A model generated the notes under the pieces. It was not told where the DNA came from. It ran no database searches and saw only the letters and a program-made list of their open reading frames with translations. A stretch of DNA of 64,000 nt from a bacterium. Lineage in GTDB: Bacteria > Myxococcota > UBA727 > JAUIJE01. Shown in pieces: positions 210 to 26,393 of this stretch. Where the stretch lies: assembly GCA_030431455.1 (NCBI GenBank), contig JAUIJE010000008.1:248001-312000 (forward strand), in the 5' to 3' direction. The position numbers and the translations under genes are program-made. How positions within the stretch are numbered: position 1 is the stretch's first letter; the number at the start of each line of letters is the position of its first letter.

Positions 210-228
210 GTTCGCTTCCTCCGGGACC

Positions 229-277: not shown

Positions 278-280
278 GCA

Positions 281-559: not shown

Positions 560-568
560 GAGGATTGG

Positions 569-1180: not shown

Positions 1181-1232
1181 GCGCCGACAGCAGCCACGTT
1201 CGAGGTCAAGAAGAAGAAGAAGGAGATGAACG

Positions 1233-2129: not shown

Positions 2130-2237
2130 GTGCGGCCCGAGGGGGAACTGAGTGTGAGGTGGGTCGCGGCTGCTCAACACTTCCATCATTGGGTTGCGCT
2201 AATCGGCACGGTGAGCCGGCTACTGCTATCGGCACCC

Positions 2238-2657: not shown

Positions 2658-3322
2658 GTCGCTGCTCCGGCGCAACCGCAGCCGCCCGAGAAGTCCGGCT
2701 TCCGCGCCTCGCGGATGGTCTCGACGCCCTCACGGGCTATCAGGGCACCGAGGACGATGGCGGCGACGCTGTCGACCCACCAAAGAGATGGCGCGACGAC
2801 GAAGATGAGGCTCCCCGCGAAGAGCACCGCGGAGAGCTTGAAGCAAGCAAGCGTGCAGCCGGCGTCACCGAGGACGGTCGGGCTTTCCAGGGCTTGCCCG
2901 GCCTTCAGCTTCGCGCGCCAGAGGAAGAGCATCAGGCTCAGCGAGAGGGCTGAGATCACGAGGCCGGGTACGGTCGTCGCCGGGTGCGCTTGCGCAATCA
3001 GCTGGGCTGTGGAGCTCCCCGCCATGACGACGGCGAGGACGACAAACAGCCCACCGATGGCCGTGGTCGCCCGGCGTTCTCGCGCTGCATTGATCTCGGG
3101 GCCTCGCCCGGCCTCGCCACGGAACCTCCACATGACGATGCTGGCCGACGCGACTTCGATGAGGCTGTCTGCGCCGAAGCCGAAGAGCGCAACGGAGTCG
3201 TCGGAAACACCGAAGGCGATGGCGACGGCGCCCTCGATGACGTTGTAGACGATCGTCACCCACGCCAGGACCAACGCGCGGCTGACCCAGTCATTATCTG
3301 CCTCGAGAGTCGTCGCGGTCAC
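2654..3322 (-). CDS. CDF-family cation transporter, short form
   Basis: A 222-residue membrane protein with about six helices and the CDF layout but without the large C-terminal cytoplasmic domain. The metal motifs are altered: the first is FGADSLIE instead of HxxxD and the second is LGDAGCTLAC. It ends with a Cys-rich tail SGGCGCAGAAT. This short subfamily is common directly behind ArsR/SmtB-type regulators. The GTG start overlaps the arsR stop by 4 bases, so the two are translationally coupled. It likely moves a divalent metal; the substrate is unclear because the site residues differ from Zn-type CDFs. Confidence 0.75.
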   Translation of the reverse strand: MTATTLEADNDWVSRALVLAWVTIVYNVIEGAVAIAFGVSDDSVALFGFGADSLIEVASASIVMWRFRGEAGRGPEINAARERRATTAIGGLFVVLAVVMAGSSTAQLIAQAHPATTVPGLVISALSLSLMLFLWRAKLKAGQALESPTVLGDAGCTLACFKLSAVLFAGSLIFVVAPSLWWVDSVAAIVLGALIAREGVETIREARKPDFSGGCGCAGAAT

Positions 3323-3720
3323 GCAACCACCTCCCGAGCCCGAGCGATGACACTTCCGACATCGACGTCACAGAGCCTGTAGAATACGAGCTTGCCCTCG
3401 GAGCGGTGTTGCACGAGACCTACCTGTCGGAGACTGCGAAGCTGATGTGAAGTGGCGGACACCGACTGCCCAACCGCTTCTGCGATGTCGCAGACGCAGA
3501 GTTCCTCGTGGGCGAGCGCTAGGAGGATCCGAAGCCGTGTCTCGCTGGCGAGCAGGGCAAAGAGCTCGGTGACGCGCGCGAGCTCATCCACGGGCGGCAT
3601 CGATACGAGCACACGTTTGAGCGCCTCGAGATGGACGACGCCCACGCTGCAGACCTGCGCCGAGCTTGCGGCCTCCCGGGGCCCGCGTGCTTCAGAGCCA
3701 GATTTCGCCCTCAATGGCAT
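3319..3720 (-). CDS. ArsR/SmtB-family metal-responsive repressor
   Basis: 133 residues with a winged helix-turn-helix. Helix alpha-3 carries ELCVCDIAEAV, the Cys-x-Cys-Asp motif of ArsR/CadC-type sensors; the recognition helix is SVSATSHQLRSLRQVGLV, followed by the wing SEGKLVFYRL. The N-terminal extension contains further ligands (Cys near residue 24, His near 30), as in SmtB/CadC-type alpha-N sites, so Cd/Pb/Zn/Co sensing is plausible. ATG at 3720 was chosen; a GTG two codons upstream is possible. It heads a tightly coupled operon with the short CDF transporter and the lipoprotein. Confidence 0.82.
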   Translation of the reverse strand: MPLRAKSGSEARGPREAASSAQVCSVGVVHLEALKRVLVSMPPVDELARVTELFALLASETRLRILLALAHEELCVCDIAEAVGQSVSATSHQLRSLRQVGLVQHRSEGKLVFYRLCDVDVGSVIARAREVVA

Positions 3721-3732
3721 CGTCACGACATA

Positions 3733-3754
3733 TGAACATTTGAGCGACTATTCA
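3733..3754. promoter_or_regulatory. Probable ArsR/SmtB operator
   Basis: An imperfect inverted repeat TGAACA (3733-3738) / TATTCA (3749-3754), with an inner TTGA/TCAA pair, lies just upstream of the arsR start. AT-rich TGAA..TTCA dyads are the usual operator of SmtB/CzrA-type repressors. It stands out from the GC-rich surroundings. Confidence 0.5.
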
Positions 3755-4013
3755 ATCGTGTTTCTATCTGCCCCGTGGGTCGCGACGCCAAATCCGGTCG
3801 TAGTGCCTGCTGAACACGCGTAGGTGAGCGGTGAGGGAGCGGCATATGGCAAGCCTCGCCTCGCAGAGATGATCACCGCACTGAATGACGCCGGGTTTGG
3901 GGGGCAAGCCGAGTTTGGTGCCATCAGTTCACCCATAGTGACGAAAAACTGCCGGTTGGGGCGGCCGCGTGTGCCCAAATGGACAGGACTGCGGATAGTC
4001 ACCGGATCATCCC
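3755..4013. other. Non-coding stretch between divergent arsR and merR
   Basis: About 330 bases separate the arsR and merR starts. Apart from the arsR operator at its left and the mer promoter at its right I see no convincing gene. A plus-strand open frame from 3824 runs into merR, but it has no family-like residues before the MerR helix-turn-helix and lacks a useful ribosome site. AT content is higher than in flanking genes. Confidence 0.5.
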
Positions 4014-4045
4014 TTGACTCTGTAGTGTACTTGAGGGTGCACAAT
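4014..4045 (+). promoter_or_regulatory. mer-type promoter with 20-bp spacer
   Basis: TTGACT (4014-4019) and CACAAT (4040-4045) are separated by 20 bases. MerR-family targets typically have overlong 19-20 bp spacers that activator-MerR untwists. The spacer contains a partial dyad around GTGTAC. The -10 ends only 6 bases before the merR ATG (4052), implying a nearly leaderless merR mRNA and autoregulation of the whole operon. Confidence 0.65.
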
Positions 4046-4051
4046 GGTCTC

Positions 4052-4498
4052 ATGATCGACATGAGCAGCTCAAGGCCATCGCCCACCCTCACCATCGGCA
4101 AGGTCGCCCGGCGCGCAGACGTCGGCGTGGAGACCATCCGCTTCTACGAACGCGAGGGGCTCCTCCCCGAGCCCGAGCGGGATCCGTCGAGCGGGTACCG
4201 GCGCTACCCCGAGATCATTGTGGCCCGGCTGCAGTTCATCGCGCGCGCGAAGGAGCTCGGGTTCACGCTGCGCGAGACGCGAGAGCTGCTCGACCTCCGC
4301 AATGGTCCTGCCACCTGTGGATCCGTGCGGGCCCGCGCCAACGAGAAGATCGAAGGCGTGCGCCGAAAGATCCATGACCTCCAGCGAATGGAGGAAGCGT
4401 TGGTCGCGCTGGCCGATGAGTGCCCAGCGGCGTCGAACGCGCTCGACGATTGTCCGATCCTCGCCGCGCTCGAAGGAGGGTTCGGCCGTGAGGGTTGA
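4052..4498 (+). CDS. merR: MerR, mercury-responsive transcriptional regulator
   Basis: 148 residues. The N-terminal MerR helix-turn-helix reads TIGKVARRADVGVETIRFYE then GLLPEPERD and SGYRRYPE, followed by a long dimerisation helix and the metal-binding end. All three mercury ligands are present: Cys89, Cys124 and Cys134, with 35- and 10-residue spacings (35 and 9 in Tn501 MerR). This marks it as a true Hg(II) sensor rather than CueR/ZntR. ATG at 4052 is chosen; ATG at 4061 is an alternative. It is first in the operon, with the promoter in front of it, unlike Tn21/Tn501 where merR is divergent. The stop overlaps the next gene by 11 bases. Confidence 0.9.
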   Translation: MIDMSSSRPSPTLTIGKVARRADVGVETIRFYEREGLLPEPERDPSSGYRRYPEIIVARLQFIARAKELGFTLRETRELLDLRNGPATCGSVRARANEKIEGVRRKIHDLQRMEEALVALADECPAASNALDDCPILAALEGGFGREG

Positions 4499-5309
4499 GC
4501 TGGTCTGGCAGCGCGACTGCCCAAACGTCTCGGCCGCGAGGGCCAACCTCATGCAGGCGCTCACGCAGGCCGGGGCCCCCGTGCGTTGGGATGAATGGTG
4601 CGTCGACGATGACGGCTGCCCTGGCCATGCCCACCGCTTCGGCTCTCCTACGGTCCTCGTCGACGGGGCCGACGTCGCCGGCGTCGAGCCCGGAACCGAG
4701 GAACGCTGCCGCGTCTACGACGACGGGACCGGTGCGCTCGTGGGCGTGCCTCCGACGGAGACGATCGCCCGCGCCCTACGTGAACACCACTCCGTCGCTG
4801 GTGCTGACACTACAAGTGGGCGCTTCGGCTGGCGCGGCGTGGGCGCCATGCTGCCGAGCATCGGCGTCGCGTTCCTCCCCAAGGTCGCGTGCCCCGCGTG
4901 TTGGCCCGCCTACGCGGGCGTGCTGAGCAGCCTGGGCGTGTCCTTCCTCGTCGACACGTGGTACCTGTTCGCGTTCACGGCCGCGTTCCTCGTCGTCGCC
5001 CTGTTCATGCTGGGGTTCCGAGCCCGCCGTCGACGTGGGTATGGGCCCCTGGCCCTCGGCGCGCTGTCCTCGACAGTGCTGCTCGTCGGCAAGTTCTACT
5101 TTGAGAGCGACCCCGCCATGTATGGCGCCCTCGGCCTGTTGGTCGCCGCGTCGCTCTGGAACTCGTGGCCTCGCAGACAGGCCGCATCACCTGCATGTTC
5201 GGCGTGTGAGCCTACGCCGCAGGTGCCGTCGTGTTGCGACACGACGACGACAAGAACCACAACGCCAACTCCACTGCGCGGGTCGGCCCCACAAGGAGTT
5301 ACGTCATGA
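4488..5309 (+). CDS. MerC-like mercury transporter with N-terminal thioredoxin-like domain
   Basis: 273 residues with two parts. Residues 1-95 look like a thioredoxin-fold domain (VELVWQRDCPNVSAARANL, then SPTVLVDG) with a CPN motif. Residues 110-235 are a four-helix membrane domain with KVACPACWPAYAGVLSSLG, the CxxC-in-helix signature of MerC/MerT-type Hg(II) uptake proteins. The tail holds extra thiols (ACSACEP, SCCD). GTG at 4488 follows GAAGGAGGG and lies inside the merR end. The next start overlaps its stop (ATGA). Proposed role: pass Hg(II) across the inner membrane and hand it to thiol carriers. The fusion is unusual compared with classical MerC. Confidence 0.75.
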   Translation: MRVELVWQRDCPNVSAARANLMQALTQAGAPVRWDEWCVDDDGCPGHAHRFGSPTVLVDGADVAGVEPGTEERCRVYDDGTGALVGVPPTETIARALREHHSVAGADTTSGRFGWRGVGAMLPSIGVAFLPKVACPACWPAYAGVLSSLGVSFLVDTWYLFAFTAAFLVVALFMLGFRARRRRGYGPLALGALSSTVLLVGKFYFESDPAMYGALGLLVAASLWNSWPRRQAASPACSACEPTPQVPSCCDTTTTRTTTPTPLRGSAPQGVTS

Positions 5310-9249: not shown

Positions 9250-10680
9250 TCACGAGCAGAGCGCGGCGATGGGATCGGGCGATGCGGGCAGCTCACCGCT
9301 CTTTGGCAGCCGCTCGACCAGCCGCAAGAACGTGAAAGCGTAGGCCCGACGTGCCAGGGCAAGGTCGACGTCGGTGACGGCGCGGCCGCCGTGCACCACC
9401 TCGCTCCTCATCTTGTAGATACCCTCCACGGCGTCGACCATGGCCTTCGCATGGGGGATGTGACGCAGAAGCTGGCGGGCCCGATCGACGAGGCGCGCGG
9501 TCACGCCGGCGGCGTAGCGGTCAGTGAGGAGGACCTCGATCGCCACCGCGAGCGCGACTGCCTCGTTCCACCGGCCGTCGGAGGCCTGGAAGGACCGGCG
9601 GAAGAACGTCAACGACGAGAGCAGCTTGCGGTACACGCGCGCGCTCGTGTCCTCCTTGGCCTGCCCCAAGCAGAACTTGAAGTACCCGTGCTGAACAGCG
9701 CGAACCGCCGCGTGAAGACGATCGGCCATCGCCCTCCGGCGCCTCCAGTAGCGTGGGTCGAGCTCGACGCTCATGTCGCAGAGCTCGGCAAGCGCCGGTC
9801 CCGCGACGTGCATCGGGACGCAGTAGCCGCCGAGCGGTCCACCGCCGGGGCCGGAGTGGAGAACGACGTAGTGCTTCAGGTCGAGCGTCTGCCAGTTGTT
9901 CAACCGCGAAGAGCTGGAGAGTCGGGTCAGCGTGTCCTTCTCTTCCGGCTGCAGGGTGCTGAGCAACGAAATCAGCGACGTCGAGAAGCGGAGAAGCGCG
10001 ACCAGCTGAGCTTGGTTCTCGTAGTAGCCGCCAGGAAACGACTGCGCCTTCACCACCAACAGCGGGTTGCGCTCCAGCCAGAATGTGGGTCGGCTTCGAC
10101 GCCAGTGTTCGAGAAGATCCGTCGGAAGGCGCTTCTTCACCCCGAGCGCCGTCCGCGCCTCATCGAGAAACCGCATGGTCTCGGCGAAGGAGTTGGTTTG
10201 CGGCGACACCGCGAAGCCGTACTGCTCCGCCACAAACGAGACTCGGGTCGCGGTGAGCGTGTGGAGGAACCCCGCTCCGAGGATCCCCGTCGAGTGCACC
10301 GGATAGAGAACGAGGCCCGGATGGTGGAGCTTGCCGTCGCGGATGACCTCAAGCGCCCGAAGCAGCGGCTTCGTTGACGTGTCGTGCGCGAAGGCGTGGA
10401 AGAGGATGCTGTCGAGGACCGAGATCCCGATGAAGACCTCGCGGCTCCAAAGCTCTCGCGCCAGATGACGTCGCAGCTGCACAAGGTGGTGCTCGCACGC
10501 GCGGTGGGCTTTCGGGTCGGGTGGGTTCTCGTCGAGGGCGAAGTCCTCGATGGCCGTGTAGTTCGCCAGCTCCGCCCGCTTGCCCAGCAAGTACGCTTCG
10601 GAGTCGGCCAGCGTGAGCTTCTTGTTGACCTGGATGGCGCGCAGCTTCGTGCGTAGTCGCTCTGGTGAGATCCGGCGCAT
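9250..10680 (-). CDS. HEPN-like protein (ApeA-type C-terminus)
   Basis: 476 residues. The C-terminal 100 residues are a helical bundle with MRSEVVHGGR; R-x4-H is the catalytic motif of HEPN ribonucleases, and its setting after an AIEVLLTD helix is like ApeA/HEPN proteins of phage defence. The long N-terminal region (about 350 residues: helical segments, a SGPGGGPLGGYCVP loop, RYWRRRRAM) is not recognised and could be the sensor part. ATG at 10680 (MRRISPERL) was taken; further in-frame codons upstream reach 10749. It is divergent from the Ubl gene and convergent with the DUF4417-like gene, separated by only 21 bases. Confidence 0.6.
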   Translation of the reverse strand: MRRISPERLRTKLRAIQVNKKLTLADSEAYLLGKRAELANYTAIEDFALDENPPDPKAHRACEHHLVQLRRHLARELWSREVFIGISVLDSILFHAFAHDTSTKPLLRALEVIRDGKLHHPGLVLYPVHSTGILGAGFLHTLTATRVSFVAEQYGFAVSPQTNSFAETMRFLDEARTALGVKKRLPTDLLEHWRRSRPTFWLERNPLLVVKAQSFPGGYYENQAQLVALLRFSTSLISLLSTLQPEEKDTLTRLSSSSRLNNWQTLDLKHYVVLHSGPGGGPLGGYCVPMHVAGPALAELCDMSVELDPRYWRRRRAMADRLHAAVRAVQHGYFKFCLGQAKEDTSARVYRKLLSSLTFFRRSFQASDGRWNEAVALAVAIEVLLTDRYAAGVTARLVDRARQLLRHIPHAKAMVDAVEGIYKMRSEVVHGGRAVTDVDLALARRAYAFTFLRLVERLPKSGELPASPDPIAALCS

Positions 10681-10784: not shown

Positions 10785-11009
10785 ATGCGTGTGAAGCTCC
10801 TCCGCCTCGGGCACAGTGCCCGTGAGTTCTCCGACCTGCCCGCTGGCTCGACGATCAAGGATCTCTTGGAAAGGGCGGACGTCCCTCCGTCCATGCGGAA
10901 GTCGTTCTCAGTCACCGTCGACGGCCTCGTCGTCGGCCACGAGACCAACCTGGTGGATGGCCAGATCTGCGTGGTCACGCCGCACATCGAGGGCGGCGCC
11001 CGAGCCTGA
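10785..11009 (+). CDS. Ubiquitin-like beta-grasp protein (MoaD/ThiS-like; PRTRC-C-like)
   Basis: 74 residues with a MoaD/ThiS-style beta-grasp pattern: strand MRVKLLRLG, a turn with hydrophobic residues (REFSDLPAGSTIKDLLERA helix), SFSVTVDGLVVG, and a final strand GQICVVTPHIEGG. A Gly-Gly pair at 70-71 is followed by ARA, so the usual GG end would appear only after removal of three residues, a plausible job for the JAMM peptidase encoded downstream. A strong ribosome site follows a leader hairpin. First gene of the Ubl-E2-JAMM-E1 operon. Size and position fit PRTRC system protein C or other prokaryotic Ubls; the assignment rests on fold pattern and context. Confidence 0.7.
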   Translation: MRVKLLRLGHSAREFSDLPAGSTIKDLLERADVPPSMRKSFSVTVDGLVVGHETNLVDGQICVVTPHIEGGARA

Positions 11010-11027
11010 ACCCCAAAACCCGTCACC

Positions 11028-11065
11028 GACGTCGAAGGCCACCCACTCGGGTGGCCTTCGACGTC
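11028..11065 (+). terminator. Perfect 17-bp hairpin between Ubl and E2-like genes
   Basis: The arms 11028-11044 and 11049-11065 are exact inverted repeats (17 bp) around the loop ACTC. No U-tract follows (TTGGAGG), so this is either a partial, U-less terminator or an RNase/processing barrier that leaves more Ubl than E2 message. The E2-like gene starts 12 bases after it, within the same transcription unit. Confidence 0.65.
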
Positions 11066-11077
11066 TTGGAGGCTCAC

Positions 11078-12463
11078 GTGCTCATCAATCGCACCGACGT
11101 GCCGGCGCCGCTGCTGGCGGCCATCGACTACGAGGTCCAGCGCCTGGGCCTCGACATCTACATCAACACGCAGTCCACGCCTCCGGACGACGCGCACATT
11201 GGCAACGCTATTGAGCTGTGGTGGCCGCGCTCCGGTGACGGCGCCGACATCGCCTTCCGAGCCGGTGACGCCACCGTCCACTACACAGGGCCGTGGCACA
11301 GCGTGCGCGGCGACTACGCGATGCGCGCCACGCTCAACGACGACGGCTACGCGCCGGTCATCGCCAGTGTCCACGGCCGCCGTGTTCTTCTGGCCTTCGA
11401 GCCGTCTCGACTCGCGTCCACACCGTGGCGGGATGCTGACGGCAACGACCTCCCGGGCAACCCGCTCGGCCGCGTCCTGGGCGACGTCTTCGCCGAGTGC
11501 CTGCCACGCGCGGCCGACGCCGAGCTCGACACCCGCCCGTGGGTCGGGACCAAGCTCGCTGCCCTCGACTGCCGCGTGCAGCGGGTGCGGCAGGAGATGT
11601 CCACCAACCAGCACCGGCTCTGGGAGCTGGAGCGCGAGCTGCACAACGTCCTGACCAAGATCAGCGAGCAACGTGAGCTCATCGAGCTGCTGGACGGTGA
11701 TGTCGCCGCTCTCCGTCGTCGGAAGGCGAAGGAGGAGGCGGCCGACCTCGGCCGGCTCGTTCCCCACGCCTTCGAGCGCATCGCATCCAAGGGTGAGGCG
11801 TTGAAGGCTCGCACGTCGCCCGTCCACATACTCTGGAGTGACCGGGTGTACCCGATGGGCCGCTTTGATGTGGTCGTTCACCTTCCGAGCGGAAGCGTTG
11901 CGGCGGTTCCCGTTGACGATGGCTTCACACGCCAGGGTTACCCACACCCGCACCTCGACGCCGAGGGCAACCCGTGCTGGGGGAACATGGCCCGCCCAGT
12001 GAAGGAGGCGCTCGCCAGCGGCCAAGTCGTGGAAGCGCTGACCACGATCCGGACATTCCTCGGCCACTACAACCCCGACAACCCGTATCTGTCCATCACG
12101 AGATGGGGCGAGGACGACGTTGACGAGGAGGCCGAGCGGTTCGAGCGCTGCTACGAGAGCGCTGACCCATTCGGCGACTGCATCACCTGCGACGACTCGG
12201 ACTGCCCGTATTGGCACGACCGACACGAGAGGTGCTGGGAGGCAGGCTCGTGGTCGTCGCTACGCGACTGCGTGGGATGTGGCCGCTGCGACCACGCCAC
12301 CGACGCCGTCGAAGACTGCCGCAGCGACCACGAGGACGGCGGCTGCGTGAGCTGCCGAGTGGACGACTGCCGCTACCAGGGCCAGGCGCCCGACTGCGAC
12401 GATGAAGAACCCGAAGAACCTGAAGACGAGGGCGAAGAGCTCGTGCAGCTCGGCGCCCGCTGA
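11078..12463 (+). CDS. E2-like ubiquitin-conjugating protein with coiled coil and Cys-rich C-terminus (PRTRC-B-like)
   Basis: 461 residues. Residues about 1-160 are beta-rich and unrecognised; about 165-235 form a coiled coil (RVQRVRQEMSTNQHRLWELE onward). About 250-345 is an E2/RWD-like domain: RFDVVVHLPSG, then YPHPHLDAEGNPCWGNM with His290 and Cys300. The 10-residue His-to-Cys spacing equals that of HPN to catalytic Cys in eukaryotic E2s. The C-terminal 100 residues contain three similar clusters (CITCDDSDC, CVGCGRC, CVSCRVDDC) plus other Cys/His, likely zinc-binding, and end in an acidic tail. GTG at 11078 with GGAGG is used; the upstream GTG (11051) lies inside the hairpin. Probable Ubl transfer enzyme, perhaps with built-in E3-like part. 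Confidence 0.72.
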   Translation: MLINRTDVPAPLLAAIDYEVQRLGLDIYINTQSTPPDDAHIGNAIELWWPRSGDGADIAFRAGDATVHYTGPWHSVRGDYAMRATLNDDGYAPVIASVHGRRVLLAFEPSRLASTPWRDADGNDLPGNPLGRVLGDVFAECLPRAADAELDTRPWVGTKLAALDCRVQRVRQEMSTNQHRLWELERELHNVLTKISEQRELIELLDGDVAALRRRKAKEEAADLGRLVPHAFERIASKGEALKARTSPVHILWSDRVYPMGRFDVVVHLPSGSVAAVPVDDGFTRQGYPHPHLDAEGNPCWGNMARPVKEALASGQVVEALTTIRTFLGHYNPDNPYLSITRWGEDDVDEEAERFERCYESADPFGDCITCDDSDCPYWHDRHERCWEAGSWSSLRDCVGCGRCDHATDAVEDCRSDHEDGGCVSCRVDDCRYQGQAPDCDDEEPEEPEDEGEELVQLGAR

Positions 12464-12497
12464 AACACAAACAACAACCTGAACAAGGAGGTGCACC

Positions 12498-13178
12498 ATG
12501 CCCAAGTGCCTGTGCCCGATCGTGCCCACCATCTTCCTCGCACCGCTCGCGGCCTGGAAGATCGAGAACCTGACGATGATGTCGCCGGACGAGGTCAGCG
12601 CCCTCGGCGTGGTCCGTGACGTCTACGAAGACGACCAGCTGACCGAGATCGTCGTCGAGGACATCCGCATCCCGAGCCAGCAGGCGGGACCGGCGTCGAC
12701 GGAGATGGACCCTGAGGGGGTCGCGGCCGTCCTGGCCGAGTTCGCCGGCGACGGGGTCGACGCCGCCGACGTGCGGCTCTGGATGCACTCGCACGCGGCC
12801 ATGAAGACCTTCTGGTCGCAGACCGACGTCGACTGCATCGAGGGCCTCCGGACCGGCGAAGGCGCGCCCCTGGTGTCCATCGTCACCAACCACGACGGGC
12901 ACCGCCTCGGCCGCATCGACTGGTGGGAGCCCGTGCGCTTGACGCTCGACGATGTCCCGGTCGAGGTACTGCTCCCCGACTACGACCTGGCCGACGAGTT
13001 GTCGGCGACGCTGGCCGAGCGGGTGCGGCCCTTTCCGCCACCGCCGAAAACGAAGGCCCTCGCGATCCGCGACACGCCTGCGCCCAACCACCACGGCCTC
13101 TGGTGGGAGGACGACGGGCTCGACCTGCTCGGTGGCCACGTGTGGGGTGCCGACGTGGACGAGGAGGACGTCCGATGA
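12498..13178 (+). CDS. JAB/JAMM metallopeptidase (PRTRC-A-like)
   Basis: 226 residues. The zinc peptidase motif is complete: Glu32 (SPDEVSALG) and His97-x-His99-x7-Ser107-x2-Asp110 in WMHSHAAMKTFWSQTD, the JAMM signature of Rpn11/AMSH and bacterial Ubl-processing enzymes. The C-terminal 70 residues are Pro/acidic and unrecognised. AAGGAGGTG lies before ATG at 12498, an exceptionally strong ribosome site. It overlaps the E1-like gene by 4 bases. Expected roles: trim the Ubl tail after Gly71 and/or remove Ubl from targets. Confidence 0.85.
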   Translation: MPKCLCPIVPTIFLAPLAAWKIENLTMMSPDEVSALGVVRDVYEDDQLTEIVVEDIRIPSQQAGPASTEMDPEGVAAVLAEFAGDGVDAADVRLWMHSHAAMKTFWSQTDVDCIEGLRTGEGAPLVSIVTNHDGHRLGRIDWWEPVRLTLDDVPVEVLLPDYDLADELSATLAERVRPFPPPPKTKALAIRDTPAPNHHGLWWEDDGLDLLGGHVWGADVDEEDVR

Positions 13179-13843
13179 CGGACCGCTACCAACGACAACG
13201 CGGCCTGGTTGATGTCGATGCTCTGCGCGCGGCCCACGTCGCGCTCATCGGCTGCGGCAGCCTCGGAAGCCACGTAGCCATGGGGCTCGCGCGGATGGGG
13301 CTCGGGGAGCTGACCATCTGGGACGCCGACGTCGTCTCCGAGGTGAACCTCCCGAGCCAGGCGTTCATGAACACTGACGTCGGGCGCCTCAAGGTCGAGG
13401 CGCTCGACTCGGCGCTGTTCGGCATCGGCCACACGTCGGTGATCGTGAACGGCGAGTTGTTCGCCGGAGGCGACGTTCCCAGCGTCGTCGTTGTTGCCGT
13501 CGACTCGCTCGGGGCCCGGAAGCGCATCTGGGAGGTGCTGCGCGGAAAGGACGTCAGCCTTGTCGTTGACGGCCGCATGGCCGGCGACGTCGGCCGTGTC
13601 CTGACCGTGAGTCCGGCGTCGCTCAGCAGCCGTCGTCGGTACGCGGCGAGCCTGACCGGTGAGCCGTACGAGGCGCCGTGCACCGGGCGCACCGTGTGGC
13701 CGACGGTCGTCGCGGTCGCCGCGCTCATGACCCGGGCCGTGGCCATGCACCTGTCGCGTCGTCCCGTACCCGAGGATGTAACGCTCGACCTTGAGCTGGG
13801 GCTGATGATGGGAGGTGCGTCATGCGCGGCGCCCGCCCTCTGA
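13175..13843 (+). CDS. ThiF/E1-like Ubl-activating enzyme (PRTRC ThiF family)
   Basis: 222 residues, a minimal adenylation domain. The nucleotide loop is HVALIGCGSLGSHVA (GxGxxG at 26-31), followed by the ThiF/MoeB pattern LTIWDADVVSEVNLPSQAF with the acidic/Asn residues that hold Mg-ATP. A conserved-style Cys lies at 169 in EAPCTGRTVWPTV, the position of the catalytic/crossover Cys of short E1-like proteins. There is no zinc CxxC pair. ATG overlaps the JAMM stop (ATGA). Role: adenylate the Ubl C-terminus and pass it to the E2-like Cys300. Confidence 0.85.
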   Translation: MTDRYQRQRGLVDVDALRAAHVALIGCGSLGSHVAMGLARMGLGELTIWDADVVSEVNLPSQAFMNTDVGRLKVEALDSALFGIGHTSVIVNGELFAGGDVPSVVVVAVDSLGARKRIWEVLRGKDVSLVVDGRMAGDVGRVLTVSPASLSSRRRYAASLTGEPYEAPCTGRTVWPTVVAVAALMTRAVAMHLSRRPVPEDVTLDLELGLMMGGASCAAPAL

Positions 13844-14373
13844 CGCCTCGCGAGATCGAGCGGGTGCGAGAGGTCCTCGACGACCGGGGCCGTGGTCTGT
13901 TCGAGGTGCTTCTCAATCTTGGCCTCAGATTGAGTGAGGCGCTTGAGCTCAACGTTGGTGATGTTGTTGACGTCAGAGGCGACGTCGTTGATGAGCTCAG
14001 AGTCAGGCCCATGAAGACGGGTCGGGGCCGGCGCGTTCCGCTGAACTCCAGCGTGCGCGCCGTGCTTCGAGAACTCGTCGACGGCCGCGGCAACCACGAG
14101 GAGCCGCTGTTCGTGTCTCGGCACGGGCGGCGGCTCTCTCGCACCCAGGCGTCGCGGCTGTTCATGCGTCTGCGCGATGAGCTCGGCCTGGGCTCGCGCG
14201 TGAGCAGTCACAGCTGCCGGAAGAGCACGGCCACGCTCTTGCGGCGGCGGGGCGTCGGCCTCGACGTCATCCGATCGATCCTCGGCCACCGCGACCTCGC
14301 GTCGCTCGCCGCCTACATCGACGTCGACCCTGACGACGTCGTGCAAGCCGTCCACAGCCTCGACGACCTGTAG
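13822..14373 (+). CDS. Minimal tyrosine recombinase (catalytic domain only)
   Basis: 183 residues, close to a bare phage-integrase catalytic domain without arm- or core-binding domains. The active-site set is complete: Arg36 (GLRLSEALEL), Lys in MKTGRGR, His-x-x-Arg in SHSCRKSTAT, His in LGHRDLAS and Tyr in AAYIDV. GGAGGT precedes the ATG, and the gene overlaps thiF by 22 bases, so it belongs to the Ubl operon. It could act as Xer-like resolvase, invertase or accessory integrase; a 180-residue form is shorter than usual integrases (300-400). Confidence 0.82.
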   Translation: MRGARPLTPREIERVREVLDDRGRGLFEVLLNLGLRLSEALELNVGDVVDVRGDVVDELRVRPMKTGRGRRVPLNSSVRAVLRELVDGRGNHEEPLFVSRHGRRLSRTQASRLFMRLRDELGLGSRVSSHSCRKSTATLLRRRGVGLDVIRSILGHRDLASLAAYIDVDPDDVVQAVHSLDDL

Positions 14374-14441: not shown

Positions 14442-14723
14442 ATGCTGCAAATGAAGGAGCAGGAGGTGCCGGCATCCGATCCGCGCTCGGTCTACTTCCT
14501 GGGCCTGCCGGGCCGCACGCTCGTCGCCACGCCAGGGGCGTTGGAGGCGTTCACCGCAGGGGAGATTTCGTTTGCGATCTCAACCCTCAAAGAGCGCGCC
14601 GATGCCTCGGCAACCGGCCTCGACTACCTGGCTGTCTTCGAGTCCGAGGACGGCCGCCGCCTGTTTGTCATCGACGACGGCCCCGATGGAGTGGTGACCC
14701 TGCTGCTGCCCTCGGACTACTGA
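14442..14723 (+). CDS. Hypothetical protein, 93 residues
   Basis: An acidic soluble protein with no recognised family. It contains SVYFLGLPGRTLVATPGALEAF, an alpha/beta middle (ISFAISTLKERADAS) and two beta strands (YLAVFESEDGRRLFVIDDG, GVVTLLLPS). The strong ribosome site AAAGGAGAAG after a leader hairpin shared with the Ubl gene suggests co-regulation. It sits between the recombinase and the small membrane proteins. It could be an accessory protein of the cassette; no function is claimed. Confidence 0.6.
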   Translation: MLQMKEQEVPASDPRSVYFLGLPGRTLVATPGALEAFTAGEISFAISTLKERADASATGLDYLAVFESEDGRRLFVIDDGPDGVVTLLLPSDY

Positions 14724-15091: not shown

Positions 15092-15171
15092 AGATTGCGC
15101 AGACGCTCATCACCGTCATCACGCTCATCGTCGCCGCGCACGACCTCTACCAGGACCTGCGACGGCGATGA
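15088..15171 (+). CDS. 27-residue membrane peptide coupled to parB
   Basis: A GTG-start frame encodes 27 residues: a hydrophobic stretch (AQTLITVITLIVAAH) and a charged tail DLYQDLRRR. It overlaps the previous gene (GTGA) and the parB start (ATGA), so it completes an unbroken chain of coupled genes. It is too short for homology, and its reality rests on this coupling. Confidence 0.4.
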   Translation: MKIAQTLITVITLIVAAHDLYQDLRRR

Positions 15172-15830
15172 GGGTGGCGATCGGACGGCTGGACGAAAAC
15201 CCCTTTCAACCTCGCCGTCATTTCGACGAGGACGGCATCGTGGAACTCGCTCGCAGCCTCAAGGCCGACGGCCTGATGCAGCCGCTCGTTGTCGCCAAGC
15301 GTGGTCGCCGCTTCCTGCTCATCGCCGGGGAGCGGCGGCTGCGCGCGGCGCGACATCTGGGCTGGTCGCACGTAGAGGTGCGGGTGGTGGATGCCGATGA
15401 TGAAAGGCTCCGCACGCTATCGATTGTCGAGAACCTGCAGCGGCGGGACCTGTCGGACGTCGAACGCGGTCGCGCGCTCAAGGCGCTGAAGGAGGCGGAG
15501 ACGCTGACGTGGGCGCAGGTGGCCGAACGTGTCGGGCTCGGCCGGCGGCGCGTGCTGCAACTCGTGAAGTTGCTGGACGCGCCGGAGGACGTGCTGGCCA
15601 TGGTCGAGCGCGGAGAGGCCAGCGAGCGCCGGGTGCGCGAACTGGTGCGGGAGGGCGTGGCTAGCGAGGAGCTCGCGGAGCGGTTGGCCCAACAAGGGGA
15701 ACCGCGGTGCACCCCAGCGCCGGCGTGGGAGCGGCCTCTGCGCCGACTCGAGCGCGCCCTTGCGGCGGCTGGCGACGATGAGCGGGCCGAGCTCCGCGCG
15801 CACCTATTGCGGCTCCTGGAGGCGTCGTGA
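15168..15830 (+). CDS. ParB/Spo0J-family protein
   Basis: 220 residues. The N-terminal ParB/Srx domain reads RLDENPFQPRRHFDEDGIVE, then LKADGLMQPLVV and the CTP-binding GERRLRAARHLGW; the central helix-turn-helix spans about 95-150 (LSDVERGRALKALKEAETLT, then WAQVAERVGLGRRRVLQLVKLL). The C-terminus is shorter than in chromosomal ParB. No parA is adjacent. A lone ParB next to a Ubl/E2/JAMM/ThiF set is the defining pairing of PRTRC cassettes. ATG at 15168 overlaps the preceding peptide gene. Confidence 0.88.
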   Translation: MRVAIGRLDENPFQPRRHFDEDGIVELARSLKADGLMQPLVVAKRGRRFLLIAGERRLRAARHLGWSHVEVRVVDADDERLRTLSIVENLQRRDLSDVERGRALKALKEAETLTWAQVAERVGLGRRRVLQLVKLLDAPEDVLAMVERGEASERRVRELVREGVASEELAERLAQQGEPRCTPAPAWERPLRRLERALAAAGDDERAELRAHLLRLLEAS

Positions 15831-16200: not shown

Positions 16201-18156
16201 CTACGAATCTTCTCCGTTCCCAATCCGAACACAAACGAGACGTTTGTTCGGACCAAAGAGGCGGACGTTCGCCTCGTATTTCCTGCCCTTTTCGATGAGG
16301 AGAAGCCCCTGCGCCTTCCAGGCGTCCAGAATGGGCGCCGGCTCGTAGCCCCACCGCTTGAGCCGCGGCTCAAGCTCGGCGCGCGCTATGCCGAGGTGGC
16401 CCTGGTAGTCCCACCTGCCGACGCAGTCCTTTGGAGCCACGCTCACGCCGCCGCCCTCGAACAGATGGCGATGGCGCTCGGCCCAGCCCTGGAGCATCTC
16501 GAGCGCTTCAGCCGCCGGGTCCCCCTCCTTGGCCTCGTCCAAGATCTTCGACCAGAGGGGGTCAGCGAGCGGGTCGGCCTCTGACCACGGGAGGAGCCCC
16601 GCCCTGCAGCCGGCGCGGTGTGCGACGTGGAGGACTGCGGCGTGGCTCGCGAGGCGATCGCCAACGCCACGTTGCGCACCGTGCGCGTAGTCGACCCGCA
16701 TCCGCCGGTGGTAGTCCCGCCACCGTCGCCACTTGCTCTTGCGGTCGAGGAGGTAGCGCGCGAACAGCAGGAGTGCATGGCCGTGGTTTCGCTCAATCCC
16801 CTCGCGGACCTTCGACGTCAGGTCTCTCATCTCCTCTGACTGTGCACCGAAGGGAAGGTCGCGCACGACGAGGCAGCGGGCGCGGAGCCCTGCGTGTGCA
16901 GTGCCCTCCCAGATGACCTGCTCTCCCGACGAGAGGAGAATCCCTCGTTGCCGACCGCCCGCCCGCTGCCGACCGGATCGGGCTGGCGGTGCCCCCTGCG
17001 TGAAGTCGTAAACCGCGTGCGCGATCTTCTCCTTGTCGCCGCGCGCCAACTTCGTGTCGTCGAAGAAGAGGGGGTGATCGGGGAGACCGACCGCGAGATC
17101 GTTGAACGCTGCGAGACTCGCGCCCCAGGTGTGCATGACCTCGTGCGGCGCGCCGACAACGCTGGCCGCAGCCTCGATGCAGGTGGACTTGCCGGTGCTC
17201 GTGCCGGAGCCGCCGAGATGAAGGACAAAGGACTGTGCGCCTAGGATGTCGAGCAGTGGCGCCGCGAGCGCGGCGGTCACCGCCAAGCGTGCGATCGGGT
17301 AAGGCTCCAGCAAGCCCATGGCGTCCTGCCAGCCGCTCAATGTCCCAGCCTCTTTGAAGCCGCGGGTGACGTCGACCCCCGTCGTGGGCCGTTGGTACAT
17401 GACCTCGAGGTCACCCGTGCACCTCTTCCCGCTTAGGAAAGACCGCCGGTGGGTCGTGATTCCACCGTCCTCGTCGAGCCACGTGGGCTCGCCACGGTCA
17501 ATCCAACCGCAGCGATTCGAGATCCAGGTCTCCGGCAGTCGCCGCACATCGGCTTGTTCCTGCTCGGCCAGGAACTCCGCAATGCGCCGCGCGTTCTTCT
17601 GGGTCGTCGGCGCGCCCAGCTTTGCGAGCTTCCGTATGCCTCCGCTCGAGAACGCTTGGTCGCGCTCGATGACAGCACTACCGGTCGAACCTCGGGACTC
17701 CCACGCCACCTTGAGCCGCTGATGGTCGCTATCGAGTTCAAGAACCCGACCGACGACGGCGATGATGCCCGGGCATATATTCGCGCCAGACGAGTCGTGC
17801 AGAGCCTGTCCGTCGAACGCGTACCCTGCCGGCGGGAGGAGCTTGTAGCCGTCGAGGACGACGCACATCGATAGGCGTTCAAGCATGTCGTGCGTGACGC
17901 CTGCGAAACCGACGGCGCCGGAGCACTCGACAACCTGCACGCCGCCCCACCCGTGGCGCCTGGACAGTGACGCGATGACCTTCGCCCGAAGGTCAGTATC
18001 GGCGTCATCGGCGAGCGGGATTTCAACGCCGTCGTCGGTCGTGAACTCCATCAGGTCGGCGCCGGGCCAGCCCGCCGCCCGCATCTCTCCCAGGCACTCC
18101 TGCGCTCGCGCGTTGGCGGCCTCCGAGGCCGGGCGAAAGAGGACCGAGAACCCCAT
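16201..18156 (-). CDS. DUF927-family ATPase
   Basis: 651 residues. The ATPase core is visible: LHLGGSGTSTGKSTCIEAA (Walker A, GxxGxGKST-like, about residue 315), then HPLFFDDTKLA (Walker B), and SSGEQVIWEGTAHAGLRAR, the typical DUF927 second region with the downstream Arg. The C-terminal 150 residues may be a winged-helix module. DUF927 proteins are helicase/packaging-like ATPases of plasmids and integrative elements, with unknown exact role. It lies 6 bases after the Xre gene on the same strand and is probably repressed with it. Confidence 0.75.
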   Translation of the reverse strand: MGFSVLFRPASEAANARAQECLGEMRAAGWPGADLMEFTTDDGVEIPLADDADTDLRAKVIASLSRRHGWGGVQVVECSGAVGFAGVTHDMLERLSMCVVLDGYKLLPPAGYAFDGQALHDSSGANICPGIIAVVGRVLELDSDHQRLKVAWESRGSTGSAVIERDQAFSSGGIRKLAKLGAPTTQKNARRIAEFLAEQEQADVRRLPETWISNRCGWIDRGEPTWLDEDGGITTHRRSFLSGKRCTGDLEVMYQRPTTGVDVTRGFKEAGTLSGWQDAMGLLEPYPIARLAVTAALAAPLLDILGAQSFVLHLGGSGTSTGKSTCIEAAASVVGAPHEVMHTWGASLAAFNDLAVGLPDHPLFFDDTKLARGDKEKIAHAVYDFTQGAPPARSGRQRAGGRQRGILLSSGEQVIWEGTAHAGLRARCLVVRDLPFGAQSEEMRDLTSKVREGIERNHGHALLLFARYLLDRKSKWRRWRDYHRRMRVDYAHGAQRGVGDRLASHAAVLHVAHRAGCRAGLLPWSEADPLADPLWSKILDEAKEGDPAAEALEMLQGWAERHRHLFEGGGVSVAPKDCVGRWDYQGHLGIARAELEPRLKRWGYEPAPILDAWKAQGLLLIEKGRKYEANVRLFGPNKRLVCVRIGNGEDS

Positions 18157-23169: not shown

Positions 23170-26100
23170 TCAGAACGGCAACGAGTCGTCGTGCGGCGGC
23201 AGCCACGTGTCCTCCTTCGCGCCTCCATCGCGCCGGGCGCAGTCGAGCTCAGTCAGGAGCGCGACCAACCCCTCCTCGGCGGTCTCCGGTACGGCGTCCA
23301 CAGCCTTCGCGAGCTCAGTGATCGTGAACGCGCCGTGGTCGAAGGCGCTGGGCGGCGGCATGGTCCCCGGCGGCACCGCGGAGAGCAGCTGCCGGAGCTG
23401 CTCCTCCTTGGTCTTCACGAAGCACCTGACGTCCTCGGGGAAGAAGGCCGGGCGCGACGGCAGCCAGAAGCGGGCCCGGCGGCCTCCGAGGCGCTTCTTG
23501 GCGCCTCCGGCGACCTTCGTGCACCCGAGGCGACGCAGAGCGTCGATGATCTCGTTGGCGGCGCGACCGTCGAGATCCTTCGCCTGCATCTTCAGCGCCT
23601 CGTCGCAGATGTCGTCACGAGTGAACGCGATCTCCTCAAGCACCTTGACCGCCTTGGGGTCCTCCACGTCCTTGAACCCCGAGACCACCCACGCCTCCGT
23701 CCGCTCTGCGAGAAACGGCTCGACTTTCTCGTCGTAAAGCCCTTCGGCCTCGAACACAGAGACCGCCTGACGTCGGGCTCCATCCTCGCTGCTGTCGAAC
23801 CAGAACTTGTTCGCCATCCACTCGTCGCTTCCCGGCGCCGCGCTCAGCCAGGCCTTCGCGATGGTCAGCGCCTCAGCGAACAGCTGGTCTCGCCACGCTT
23901 CGAGCTTCGCGAGGTCGATGCGGTCTCCGACGGGAATGACGTAGAAGCGCCGGCTGCCCGAAGGGTCGTGCAAGATCTCAGCGTCGTTCGAGGACCCGCA
24001 GAAGACACACCGACGCGGGTAGGCTTCCATGTTGCGTCCGTAGGGCTTTCGGAAGACGTCGACCTGCTTCGCCAGGAACTGCTTCACGTTGTCGACGGCA
24101 CGCCGGTTCTTGAGGTGGGTCGCCTCCGACCACTCGATCAAGACGTGAGCCGTCGCGAGCATGAGCCCGTCCTTGTCACCGAGCGGGACGCCCTCGTCGG
24201 TGAACCACTCGCCGCTAGTGCGGTGACCATCGACAAGGAGCCGGAAGAAGCTCGACTTGAGGTCCCCCTGAAGCCCGACCAGCACCAGCATGTTGTCCAT
24301 CTTCTCGCCCGGGCGGAGCTGGCGGACGACGAGACCAACGACGAAGTTGCGAAACATCGCGCCGTACACCGGCATACTGCTTGGCGTGCTGAGGATCTCA
24401 GCGGGCACGCGGTCCAAGCGCGACTCGCCGTCCCACGTGGGCAGCGAGTCGAAATAGTCGAGGACCGGGTCATAGGGGTTCGCGTTGGCCGCGGCCACGA
24501 TCGCATCTCGAACACGGTTGCGATCGGGCTGCGCCTGCCAGGCCAGCTCGATGATGCCGGCGATCTCGATCTCGTGGGCGTCGGTGAGCGGCTGACCATC
24601 GAGCTCGATGCGGCGCTTGAGCAGGTTGTACGAGAGGTCGAAGCTGAAGAACTTCGAGTGCAGGAGAAACGTGAGGAGGTTGTTGGTCGAGAGCGGGAGC
24701 GTCCACGCTCCGTTCACCTTCTTCTTGATCCAGCGGTTCCACTTGCCGGTCAGCTGGCGATCAAGGTCGACGCCGCGCCCCCGCCAGAGCAGGCGCCACT
24801 GGTGCTCGTCCTTGCTCGGCGGCGGCGGATTGCCGCCAGCGTCGCTTGAGCCGCCCGGGCCACCGCCAGAGTTCCCGCCACCGCCGCCAGGCCCGTTGCC
24901 GCCGGGGTCACCCCCACTCGACCCACTGCCGTCCCACCCGGCCTCATCGCCACCACTGTCCGCCCCGTCGCGACCGTCCGTCCCGGGGTGATGATCGGCA
25001 GCGGCGGTGCCGCTATCGCAACCGCCGAGCGCGGCCTCCGCGAAGAACTCGTCGAGCTCGAAGTCCGAGCCGTCCGGCACGTACTCGGCGTGCTCGATGA
25101 CCTTTCGGGCGCCACGGAACTCGGGCCGCTCGACGAGCAGGTACCCGGCATCGGGTCCCTTCAACGCCACGGCGTCGTTGATCTTGTGGGCCAGCTCCTC
25201 GAGCGACCAGAGCGGCTCACACCTTGGGTTGTACTCGTCCCGCAGGAGCGCGAAGGCCTCGTCTCCATCGAGGTCGAAACCGCTGACCAGACAGTTCGCG
25301 GCGTAGAAGGTCTTGTTGTGGCCGGCGTGGCCGCTCTCCGCACCCTCGATGGTCGCGAGGTAGGCGCTGGCGCGCTTCAGCTTTTCGTCCCCGCTCGTCG
25401 ACGCCCGAGCTTCCTCAACCTCACGCTCGCCACGCTTGGCCTTGAGCTTTGCCACGGAGATGGGGCCCCCCGTGCCCGGTCGCCGCCACTTCTTGCCTTC
25501 GAGCCAGGCCGGGTCGAAGTAGGGCACGTCGGCGAGCATCGCATCCGTCCAGCCCTCCGCCATCCGGTAGATGTGGCCCTTCGGGTGGAGGGCACCGGGC
25601 GCAACGACCTGACCGCCGTCACCGCGCACGTCGATGATCGGACCGGTTTCGAGTTGCTGGAGCGCCTCCGCTCGGGCGGTCGCAACCCGGGCCTCCTCGG
25701 CGGCGACCTGCTCCGGGGACATGTCGCGCGCGAGGTGGGCAACGACGTCGAGGCCCAGCTTCTCCTTCGCCTCCCACGCGAACCGCGCCTTGGAGCCGAA
25801 GATGTCCTGTCGATTCCGAACGGGTTCGCCGACCCGGCCGCCTCGGATCCGGTAGTAGTGGTGCTCGCTCTCACCCTCTCGGCTGATGGTGATCATGGGC
25901 GTGGCCGGGAACGTCGACTTTGCGACCTCGACAGCCTGGCGCCCGTCGAGGTCGAGGACGACGAGGCCGACCGACGAGAACCTGCCCGTTGCGATTCCGG
26001 GGTTGAGCTTGCCTTGGAACTCGTCCCAAATCTCGCGAAGCTCTTCCTCGGTGAAGGGCTCGCCGTTCACCACGCGCTTCCACTTCGTCGCCGGCCTCTT

Positions 26101-26202
26101 GGTACGGCGGAGCAGGGGGATGATGCTGAGGTTGGAGGAGAAGATGCGCTTGAGTTTGATGACCTCTTTGAAGGTCGGCGCACGGGGCTTGATCTTTGCC
26201 AT
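23170..26202 (-). CDS. Bifunctional primase-polymerase / VapE-type helicase
   Basis: 1010 residues. The N-terminal prim-pol domain (about 1-230) shows GIATGRFSSVGLVVLDLDG with the catalytic Asp-x-Asp, a SEHHYYR segment and VVAPGALHPKGHIYR. A long Gly/Asp/Pro low-complexity linker (about 425-475) separates it from the VapE ATPase: LPTWDGESRLDRVP, MLVLVGLQGDLKSSFFRLL (Walker A, GxxGxxKSS), a GLMLATAHVLIEWSE Walker B, ending in SRRFYVIPVG. The C-terminus has a winged-helix-like part. ATG at 26202 is coupled (TGATG) to a 38-residue frame. It is the main replication enzyme of the element; length and layout match phage/ICE primase-helicases. Confidence 0.8.
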   Translation of the reverse strand: MAKIKPRAPTFKEVIKLKRIFSSNLSIIPLLRRTKRPATKWKRVVNGEPFTEEELREIWDEFQGKLNPGIATGRFSSVGLVVLDLDGRQAVEVAKSTFPATPMITISREGESEHHYYRIRGGRVGEPVRNRQDIFGSKARFAWEAKEKLGLDVVAHLARDMSPEQVAAEEARVATARAEALQQLETGPIIDVRGDGGQVVAPGALHPKGHIYRMAEGWTDAMLADVPYFDPAWLEGKKWRRPGTGGPISVAKLKAKRGEREVEEARASTSGDEKLKRASAYLATIEGAESGHAGHNKTFYAANCLVSGFDLDGDEAFALLRDEYNPRCEPLWSLEELAHKINDAVALKGPDAGYLLVERPEFRGARKVIEHAEYVPDGSDFELDEFFAEAALGGCDSGTAAADHHPGTDGRDGADSGGDEAGWDGSGSSGGDPGGNGPGGGGGNSGGGPGGSSDAGGNPPPPSKDEHQWRLLWRGRGVDLDRQLTGKWNRWIKKKVNGAWTLPLSTNNLLTFLLHSKFFSFDLSYNLLKRRIELDGQPLTDAHEIEIAGIIELAWQAQPDRNRVRDAIVAAANANPYDPVLDYFDSLPTWDGESRLDRVPAEILSTPSSMPVYGAMFRNFVVGLVVRQLRPGEKMDNMLVLVGLQGDLKSSFFRLLVDGHRTSGEWFTDEGVPLGDKDGLMLATAHVLIEWSEATHLKNRRAVDNVKQFLAKQVDVFRKPYGRNMEAYPRRCVFCGSSNDAEILHDPSGSRRFYVIPVGDRIDLAKLEAWRDQLFAEALTIAKAWLSAAPGSDEWMANKFWFDSSEDGARRQAVSVFEAEGLYDEKVEPFLAERTEAWVVSGFKDVEDPKAVKVLEEIAFTRDDICDEALKMQAKDLDGRAANEIIDALRRLGCTKVAGGAKKRLGGRRARFWLPSRPAFFPEDVRCFVKTKEEQLRQLLSAVPPGTMPPPSAFDHGAFTITELAKAVDAVPETAEEGLVALLTELDCARRDGGAKEDTWLPPHDDSLPF

Positions 26203-26318
26203 CAGCGCACCCCCGAGAACTTGGGGTTGAAGCTGATGCGATGATTGATGTCGTCGCCGACCAGCGAAGATGCGCTCTGGTTCGACACTTTGTTCAGCGT
26301 CGGATAGTTGATATACAT
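26202..26318 (-). CDS. 38-residue peptide coupled to the primase
   Basis: A short frame starting at ATG 26318, with AAGGAC eight bases upstream, encodes 38 residues with an Asn/Ser-rich polar sequence (MYINYPTLNKVSNQ ... NPKFSGVR). Its TGA overlaps the primase ATG (TGATG), so it can couple primase translation. Composition is less GC-rich than the neighbours. No homologue is recognised. Confidence 0.4.
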   Translation of the reverse strand: MYINYPTLNKVSNQSASSLVGDDINHRISFNPKFSGVR

Positions 26319-26393
26319 GAATAGTCCTTGAGCCCTCTTCGGTTGGCAGACCTGAGGGCACCGCGGCCCCGCCTTGAGCGGGGCTGTTCCTTT

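What the first reader, a model, noticed from the sequence alone, without database searches (positions are those of the whole stretch)
10785..13843. Complete Ubl-E2-JAMM-E1 conjugation operon on a mobile element
Seen: beta-grasp Ubl with Gly70-Gly71, E2-like Cys300 ten residues after His290, full JAMM motif and a short ThiF with Cys169, in one operon. A lone parB follows downstream. Established: PRTRC cassettes join ParB, ThiF, JAB and E2/Ubl-like proteins; Bil/Bub systems conjugate Ubls in phage defence. Inference: a divergent PRTRC-like cassette able to attach Ubl to targets of element or phage origin.
Basis: partly seen in the sequence, partly recalled or inferred. Interest (0 to 1): 0.85.

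Follow-up and report, generated by a model that had tools for sequence, protein, structure and literature searches.

The report
Phage-type ubiquitin-like tagging cassette
A bacterial mobile element carries a complete four-gene kit that looks able to attach a small ubiquitin-like tag to proteins, and it belongs to a largely unrecognised family of such kits carried mainly by bacterial viruses, not to the plasmid or antiviral-defence kits already described.

Summary
Window 10785-13843 encodes, in order, a single beta-grasp Ubl, an E2-like protein, a JAMM isopeptidase and a minimal ThiF-type E1, each with its own ribosome-binding site. Scans that started from the E1 recovered 33 other loci with E2-JAB-E1 in the same order (25 also with the Ubl upstream): one Phycisphaerales MAG and 32 IMG/VR contigs, a few near-duplicates; 16 of 27 viral records tested hold a terminase. 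Profiles built without the window recognise all four window proteins (probability 86-99.9%). Active sites are conserved: E2 Cys 35/35, its upstream His 32/35, five JAMM residues 39/39, E1 Cys 39/39 where aligned. Most family E2s carry a Cys-rich RING/FYVE-like tail. A more distant branch with the same order lies in the replication block of crAss-like and Flavobacterium phages, annotated as 'thiamine biosynthesis'. The cassette is not a PRTRC member: PRTRC Ubl, JAB and E2 models do not match and PRTRC E1s form a separate clade. It also fails the Bil criteria I could test. Most likely it is a working, phage-type Ubl conjugation system on an integrated element. Targets and role are unknown; use by the element is likelier than host defence.

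The parts
10785..11009 (+). Ubl, 74 aa, single beta-grasp domain; conserved Gly70/Gly71 (10992-10997) followed by a short tail, i.e. a pro-form
   Evidence: ThiS PF02597 E 0.0055, below cut-off; AlphaFold2 pLDDT 82; Foldseek MoaD, SAMP1, NEDD8; class-2 Ubl profile 85.8%, E 5e-6; 18 homologues aligned, Gly conserved at 90% or more
11028..11065 (+). perfect 17-bp hairpin with 4-nt loop between the Ubl and E2 genes, perhaps an attenuator that sets Ubl excess over enzymes (inference)
   Evidence: fold -43.3 kcal/mol, z -6.3; single copy in the genome
11078..12463 (+). E2-like protein, 461 aa: N-terminal region of unknown fold, coiled coil, E2 domain with H290-P-H-x7-C300-W-G-N (Cys300 at 11975-11977), Cys-rich tail
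   Evidence: class-2 E2 profile 98.8%, E 6e-17; start chosen by SD GGAGG
12160..12405 (+). Cys-rich, probably zinc-binding tail of the E2-like protein (13 Cys after the active-site motif), comparable with tails of most class-2 E2s
   Evidence: one search counts; class-2 profile hits FYVE and RING structures (E 1e-4 to 0.05, composition bias possible); model pLDDT mostly <50 here
12498..13178 (+). JAMM/JAB isopeptidase, 226 aa; E32, H97, H99, S107, D110
   Evidence: 39/39 for all five residues; 98.1%; Rpn11 4.7e-7
13175..13843 (+). minimal E1/ThiF adenylyltransferase, 222 aa; Cys169 (13679-13681) in APCTGR; start overlaps the JAB stop codon
   Evidence: PF00899 2.8e-19; class-2 profile 99.9%, E 9e-38; Cys conserved 39/39 where aligned
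13822..14373 (+). tyrosine recombinase, 183 aa, catalytic domain only; overlaps thiF by 22 bp, own SD GGAGG
   Evidence: PF00589 1.9e-30; no homologue found near the other cassettes
14442..14723 (+). 93-aa protein of unknown function; weak homologue follows thiF in the Phycisphaerales cassette L034 (shared GRxLVATPxAL and LLPxDY)
   Evidence: pairwise E 4e-5; not found in the other loci
15168..15830 (+). ParB-like protein
   Evidence: PF02195 3.2e-23; Noc and generic ParB models score above PRTRC_parB
16201..18156 (-). DUF927/Cch-type primase-helicase of the element
   Evidence: phrog_8841 1.7e-62
23170..26361 (-). Prim-Pol plus VapE replication protein of the element

Best explanation
The locus is a complete, probably active Ubl conjugation cascade of a phage-type family. 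Proposed steps: the JAMM protease trims the pro-Ubl after its conserved glycine; the E1 adenylates that glycine with ATP and holds it on Cys169; it passes to Cys300 of the E2; the E2, perhaps helped by its zinc-binding tail as a built-in E3-like receptor, attaches it to target proteins; the JAMM protease can remove it again. Shown here: gene order, homology of each part to a family found mainly in phages, conserved active sites, predicted beta-grasp Ubl fold. Inferred: activity, direction of transfer, the E3-like role of the tail, and the targets. I think the element uses it for its own benefit, either to control its replication, partition or recombination proteins or to disarm host proteins, rather than as a host antiphage defence (confidence in the cascade about 0.75; in use by the element about 0.5).
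For: Profiles built from other loci, without the window, recognise all four window proteins: Ubl 85.8%, E2 98.8%, JAB 98.1%, E1 99.9%. 34 loci including the window keep E2-JAB-E1 order on one strand, 26 with the Ubl upstream. Invariant or near-invariant active sites across the family. JAB profile finds Rpn11; the E2-like protein finds E2 enzymes first; the Ubl model finds MoaD, SAMP1, NEDD8. Family Ubls usually have a short tail after the conserved Gly, which implies processing. 16 of 27 viral records tested have a terminase match. Class-1 cassettes lie between primase and uracil-DNA glycosylase/resolvase genes in crAss-like phages. Some class-2 neighbours are exonuclease VIII, DNA helicase and RNA ligase. 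In the window the neighbours are a recombinase, ParB, DUF927 and VapE/Prim-Pol genes.
Against: No biochemistry. The E2 fold search of the model gave no confident PDB match (best E2-type hits UbcH7, E 0.25, and a bacterial E1-E2-Ubl complex, E 0.88), perhaps because the model includes a long coiled coil and a disordered tail. The Ubl and E2 of class 2 are too diverged from their class-1 counterparts for confident profile matches, so the link between the two phage branches rests on E1, JAB and order. The window E1 branch is weakly placed in the tree. No terminase was found on the window contig, so its element is not shown to be a phage. Role and targets have no direct evidence.
Confidence: 0.75

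Rival explanations
1. It is a divergent PRTRC cassette (type 6d of Iyer 2006) used in plasmid-like maintenance.
For: Same relative order Ubl-E2-JAB-ThiF; a parB nearby; E1 profile match 98.3%; similar E2 motif GxxCxGN..P in one PRTRC B protein.
Against: No match to the PRTRC Ubl, E2 or JAB models, with controls for B and C positive; ThiF and ParB models far below cut-off; PRTRC E1s form a clade (100/99) without the window; no room for a JAB-N domain (JAMM Glu is residue 32); no protein E or F recognised; E2 and Ubl profiles do not match PRTRC B or C.
Confidence: 0.1
2. It is a host antiphage defence operon working like Bil (BilABCD), carried on a mobile island.
For: The same four activities as the Bil operon described in PMC11354881, named A-B-C-D in the same order; defence systems are often on mobile islands; a divergent gene at 9250-10680 ends with an HEPN-like RSEVVH motif.
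Against: Relatives sit in phage genomes, including the replication block of crAss-like phages; single rather than double Ubl; E1 has one adenylation domain and 222 aa; the E2 lacks the BilB CEHH spacing; PADLOC gives only generic E1-E2 hits.
Confidence: 0.2
3. It is a sulfur-carrier or cofactor system (ThiS/MoaD-ThiF type), not protein conjugation.
For: The Ubl resembles MoaD and ThiS most; the E1 is the size of ThiF.
Against: No sulfurtransferase, rhodanese, ThiG or MoaE gene was recognised nearby; an E2 with conserved Cys and a JAMM protease accompany the E1 in the 34 ordered loci, and a sulfur-carrier role would need neither.
Confidence: 0.05

Closest known systems
PRTRC cassette (type 6d operon, Iyer et al. 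2006, PMC1779556)
   Same: Ubl, E2-like, JAB and ThiF in the same relative order on mobile elements; ParB nearby; E1 homologous
   Different: PRTRC models for Ubl, E2 and JAB do not match; no room for a JAB-N domain; proteins E and F not recognised; E1 outside the PRTRC clade; upstream His in the E2 is present, whereas type 6d E2s were described as lacking it. That type 6d equals PRTRC is my reading of the gene content
Bil system (BilABCD)
   Same: Ubl, E2, JAMM DUB and E1 in one operon; pro-Ubl processing expected
   Different: one Ubl domain, not two; short single-domain E1, not two adenylation domains plus Cys domain; canonical upstream His, not the CEHH motif; Cys-rich E2 tail; kin in phages
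Bub systems and type II CBASS Cap2/Cap3 or 6A-MBL
   Same: E1, E2 and JAMM-type enzymes attaching a modifier or a protein C-terminus; a weak JAB-profile hit to BubCD (E 0.91)
   Different: CBASS and 6A-MBL use E1-E2 fusions, and no CD-NTase or MBL gene was recognised in the neighbourhood; Bub genes could not be compared directly
ThiF/JAB gene pairs of crAss-like phages (annotated thiamine biosynthesis and metalloprotease)
   Same: Ubl-E2-like-JAB-E1 order; E1 (98.7%) and JAB (60%) profile match to the window
   Different: E2 motif YxHSH...CxGxG, longer JAB and mostly longer E1 proteins, separate E1 clade (100/99)
Caldiarchaeum Ub-E1-E2-RING-Rpn11 operon
   Same: full cascade; its Rpn11 homologue is the best PDB match of the JAB profile
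   Different: separate RING gene there; here a Cys-rich zinc-type tail is fused to the E2

Membership tests
Phage class-2 Ubl-E2-JAB-E1 family (defined here) | All four proteins match profiles built without the window | tested here: met
   85.8, 98.8, 98.1, 99.9%
Phage class-2 Ubl-E2-JAB-E1 family (defined here) | Gene order and shared strand | tested here: met
Phage class-2 Ubl-E2-JAB-E1 family (defined here) | HPH...CxG E2 motif, JAMM residues, CT E1 motif, C-terminal Gly | tested here: met
Phage class-2 Ubl-E2-JAB-E1 family (defined here) | E1 falls in one well-supported clade with the other members | tested here: inconclusive
   the window is outside the PRTRC and class-1 clades but unresolved among class-2 lineages
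Phage class-2 Ubl-E2-JAB-E1 family (defined here) | Carried by a phage (usual, not required) | tested here: not met
   no terminase match on the window contig; recombinase, ParB and replication genes only
PRTRC | Matches to the TIGR03734-03742 models above cut-off | tested here: not met
   ThiF 39.9 of 144.75 bits, ParB 57.7 of 278.6, none for the others; controls
PRTRC | JAB-N domain ahead of the JAMM fold | tested here: not met
   JAMM Glu at residue 32
PRTRC | E1 in the PRTRC clade | tested here: not met
PRTRC | Relative order Ubl-E2-JAB-ThiF | tested here: met
   shared with the phage families, so not diagnostic
Bil | Double Ubl (ISG15-like) | tested here: not met
   74 aa, one domain; definition from PMC11354881
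Bil | E1 with inactive plus active adenylation domains and a Cys domain | tested here: not met
   222 aa, one ThiF domain
Bil | BilB CEHH motif downstream of the Cys | tested here: not met
   Cys300 +6, +8, +13 are Arg, Val, Ala (sequence; motif)
Bub | Bub gene set and models | not testable with these tools
   no Bub profiles identified in the libraries; the key paper is not held
Type II CBASS / 6A-MBL | E1-E2 fusion plus CD-NTase or MBL partner | tested here: not met
   separate E1 and E2; no such partner recognised

The most novel reading that the evidence does not exclude
Tailed phages and related elements widely encode their own complete ubiquitin-like cascades with an E2 carrying a built-in RING/FYVE-like E3 module, and use them to tag host or defence proteins, or their own replication proteins, during infection or maintenance: an offensive counterpart of Bil-type defence.
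Probability: 0.35. Interest if true: 0.92.

Novelty: new variant of a known kind. Interest (0 to 1): 0.74.

Why it matters
Bacterial Ubl conjugation is known mainly as antiphage defence. A family of complete cascades in phages and mobile elements, with an E2 fused to a zinc-type tail, would show the same chemistry used by the parasites, give E2-E3-like fusions informative for the origin of eukaryotic ubiquitination, and explain crAss-like phage genes now annotated as thiamine biosynthesis. Cultured crAss-like phages (crAss001 on Bacteroides intestinalis) make it testable.

Tried and rejected
Direct searches with the E2-like protein found nothing in plasmids, phages, viral contigs, genome contigs or 193 genomes of the phylum, because it is too diverged for single-sequence search. 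Weak tblastn hits of its E2 core in plasmids were checked in five records; none showed an annotated Ubl/JAB/ThiF neighbour (two of these records carry no annotation). Plasmid ThiF hits were mostly generic; those opened were a CBASS and a PRTRC locus and one with no informative annotation. A first hhalign run used a wrong global-mode flag and was repeated in local mode. ThiF hits without an E2 neighbour (L102, L105-L131, L134-L136) were left out of the ordered set. The tyrosine recombinase and the hairpin are not conserved features of the family (in L034 the Ubl and E2 genes abut). The E2 model search was inconclusive and is not used as proof. No paper in the held library was found that describes this phage cassette, but subscription papers are missing, so prior description cannot be excluded.
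Full report
Observation. Ribosome-binding sites precede each start, and thiF starts within the end of the JAB gene. Between the Ubl and E2 genes lies a perfect 17-bp hairpin, unique in the genome. The next gene after thiF is a catalytic-domain-only tyrosine recombinase overlapping it by 22 bp, then a 93-aa gene, a 63-aa ORF, then parB.

Single-sequence evidence is weak for three of the four parts. The Ubl scores ThiS at E 0.0055 and the JAB scores Prok-JAB at E 0.1, both below the curated cut-offs; the E2-like protein has no meaningful Pfam match. Against solved structures, its first nine matches are E2 enzymes with the active site aligned, best E 0.03. The E1 is clear (PF00899, E 2.8e-19).

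Relatives. The E2-like protein alone found no relatives. The E1 led to ThiF proteins of crAss-like and Flavobacterium phages whose neighbours include a JAB and, upstream, a protein with a YxHSH...CxG motif that I read as E2-like and a Ubl-like protein. An alignment of these E1s then recovered a Phycisphaerales MAG cassette (L034) and further viral contigs, and a second alignment more. Iterated profiles over these loci give 34 loci, window included, with E2, JAB and E1 on one strand in the same order, 26 with the Ubl upstream. A few are near-duplicates (L083/L084, L103/L104, L132/L133).

The window belongs to this family. Profiles built from 25 loci without the window (20 for the Ubl) match the window proteins at 85.8% (Ubl), 98.8% (E2), 98.1% (JAB) and 99.9% (E1) probability, each only to its own counterpart. 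The loci were gathered with alignments that held the window E1, so the E1 match is not independent; the matches of the other three proteins are closer to independent, though the first-round seed alignments also held the window rows. L034 is the closest E1 (36% identity); its E2 and JAB align with the window's at pairwise E 3e-9 each, the Ubl at 2e-4, and a weak homologue of the 93-aa gene follows its thiF.

Active sites. In the family alignments the E2 Cys is present in 35/35, the His ten residues before it in 32/35, the five JAMM residues in 39/39, the E1 Cys in 39/39 aligned rows followed by Thr in 32, and the ATP-site Asn, Lys and Asp in 40/40. The Ubls end in a conserved Gly (90% or more), usually followed by one or more residues, so a pro-form trimmed by the JAMM protein is likely. 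Whether the mature end is Gly70 or Gly71 in the window is not settled: the automatic alignment puts Gly71 on the conserved column, the local motif I-E-G favours Gly70.

Folds. The Ubl model (pLDDT 82) matches MoaD, SAMP1, NEDD8 and ubiquitin structures. The E2 fragment model has a confident core (pLDDT about 90-95) of beta strands followed by helices after the Cys, but the PDB search gave only weak matches, among them UbcH7, KNL1 (RWD domains) and a bacterial E1-E2-Ubl complex; the viral library gave two uncharacterised proteins with E < 0.001 and a phage protein named type II CBASS E2 at E 0.06. I treat the E2 fold as supported by sequence more than by this search. The family JAB profile finds Rpn11 at E 4.7e-7. 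The Cys-rich tail part of the E2 profile finds FYVE and RING structures (E 1e-4 and weaker), which may be inflated by Cys content.

Context. 16 of 27 viral records tested have a terminase match in one of two searches. Class-1 cassettes sit between primase and uracil-DNA glycosylase/resolvase genes in crAss-like phages. Some class-2 neighbours are exonuclease VIII, helicase, RNA ligase and an ATPase-like protein. In the window the cassette lies on an island of lower GC3 than the following chromosome, with recombinase, ParB, DUF927 and Prim-Pol/VapE genes, and apparent metal-efflux genes upstream. No terminase is on this contig. The E2-like and JAB proteins were found in no other genome of the 193 and 195 searched in the phylum, so the cassette looks acquired.

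Comparison with known systems. PRTRC: order shared, but the models, JAB-N domain and E1 clade tests fail. Bil, as described in PMC11354881: same activities, but double Ubl, two-domain E1 and CEHH motif are absent. CBASS and 6A-MBL: no fusion and no partner genes. Bub could not be tested. I therefore rate it a new variant of a known kind.

Mechanism. The parts support a full cycle of maturation, activation, transfer and removal. That it is a working conjugation system is likely from conservation; that the tail acts as an E3 module is a guess from composition and weak matches; targets are unknown. Because kin are phage genes, often in replication neighbourhoods, I favour use by the element over host defence, but this is inference.

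Noticed in passing
L031 2762-7172 (crAss001 gp79-gp76), L012, L013, L032, L141: crAss-like phages carry a Ubl-like, E2-like, JAB and E1 gene run in their replication block; annotated only as hypothetical, metalloprotease and thiamine biosynthesis, or 'E1 enzyme family protein' in bajarodcaudo virus 1.
   Followed up: partly
window 9250-10680 (-): Divergent gene of 476 aa without a Pfam family, ending with an HEPN-like RSEVVH motif, about 100 bp from the Ubl start; could be a toxin or defence protein.
   Followed up: no
window 13822-14373: Tyrosine recombinase without N-terminal DNA-binding domain, overlapping thiF; not found near other cassettes. Possible substrate or partner.
   Followed up: partly
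L137-L138 and window 1-4500: Apparent metal-efflux genes (RND pumps of CzcA type, CDF transporters) upstream on the same island, by inspection of translated ORFs only.
   Followed up: no
L100 6667-8829: Viral contig of 395 kb with two consecutive E2-like genes after the E1 (HxPHV..PCWG motif): possible E2 duplication in a very large phage.
   Followed up: no
L029 3782-6819: Cyanobacterial plasmid pLBX (Leptolyngbya) with an unlabelled run of genes in the position of PRTRC B, A and ThiF; its ThiF groups with PRTRC E1s.
   Followed up: no
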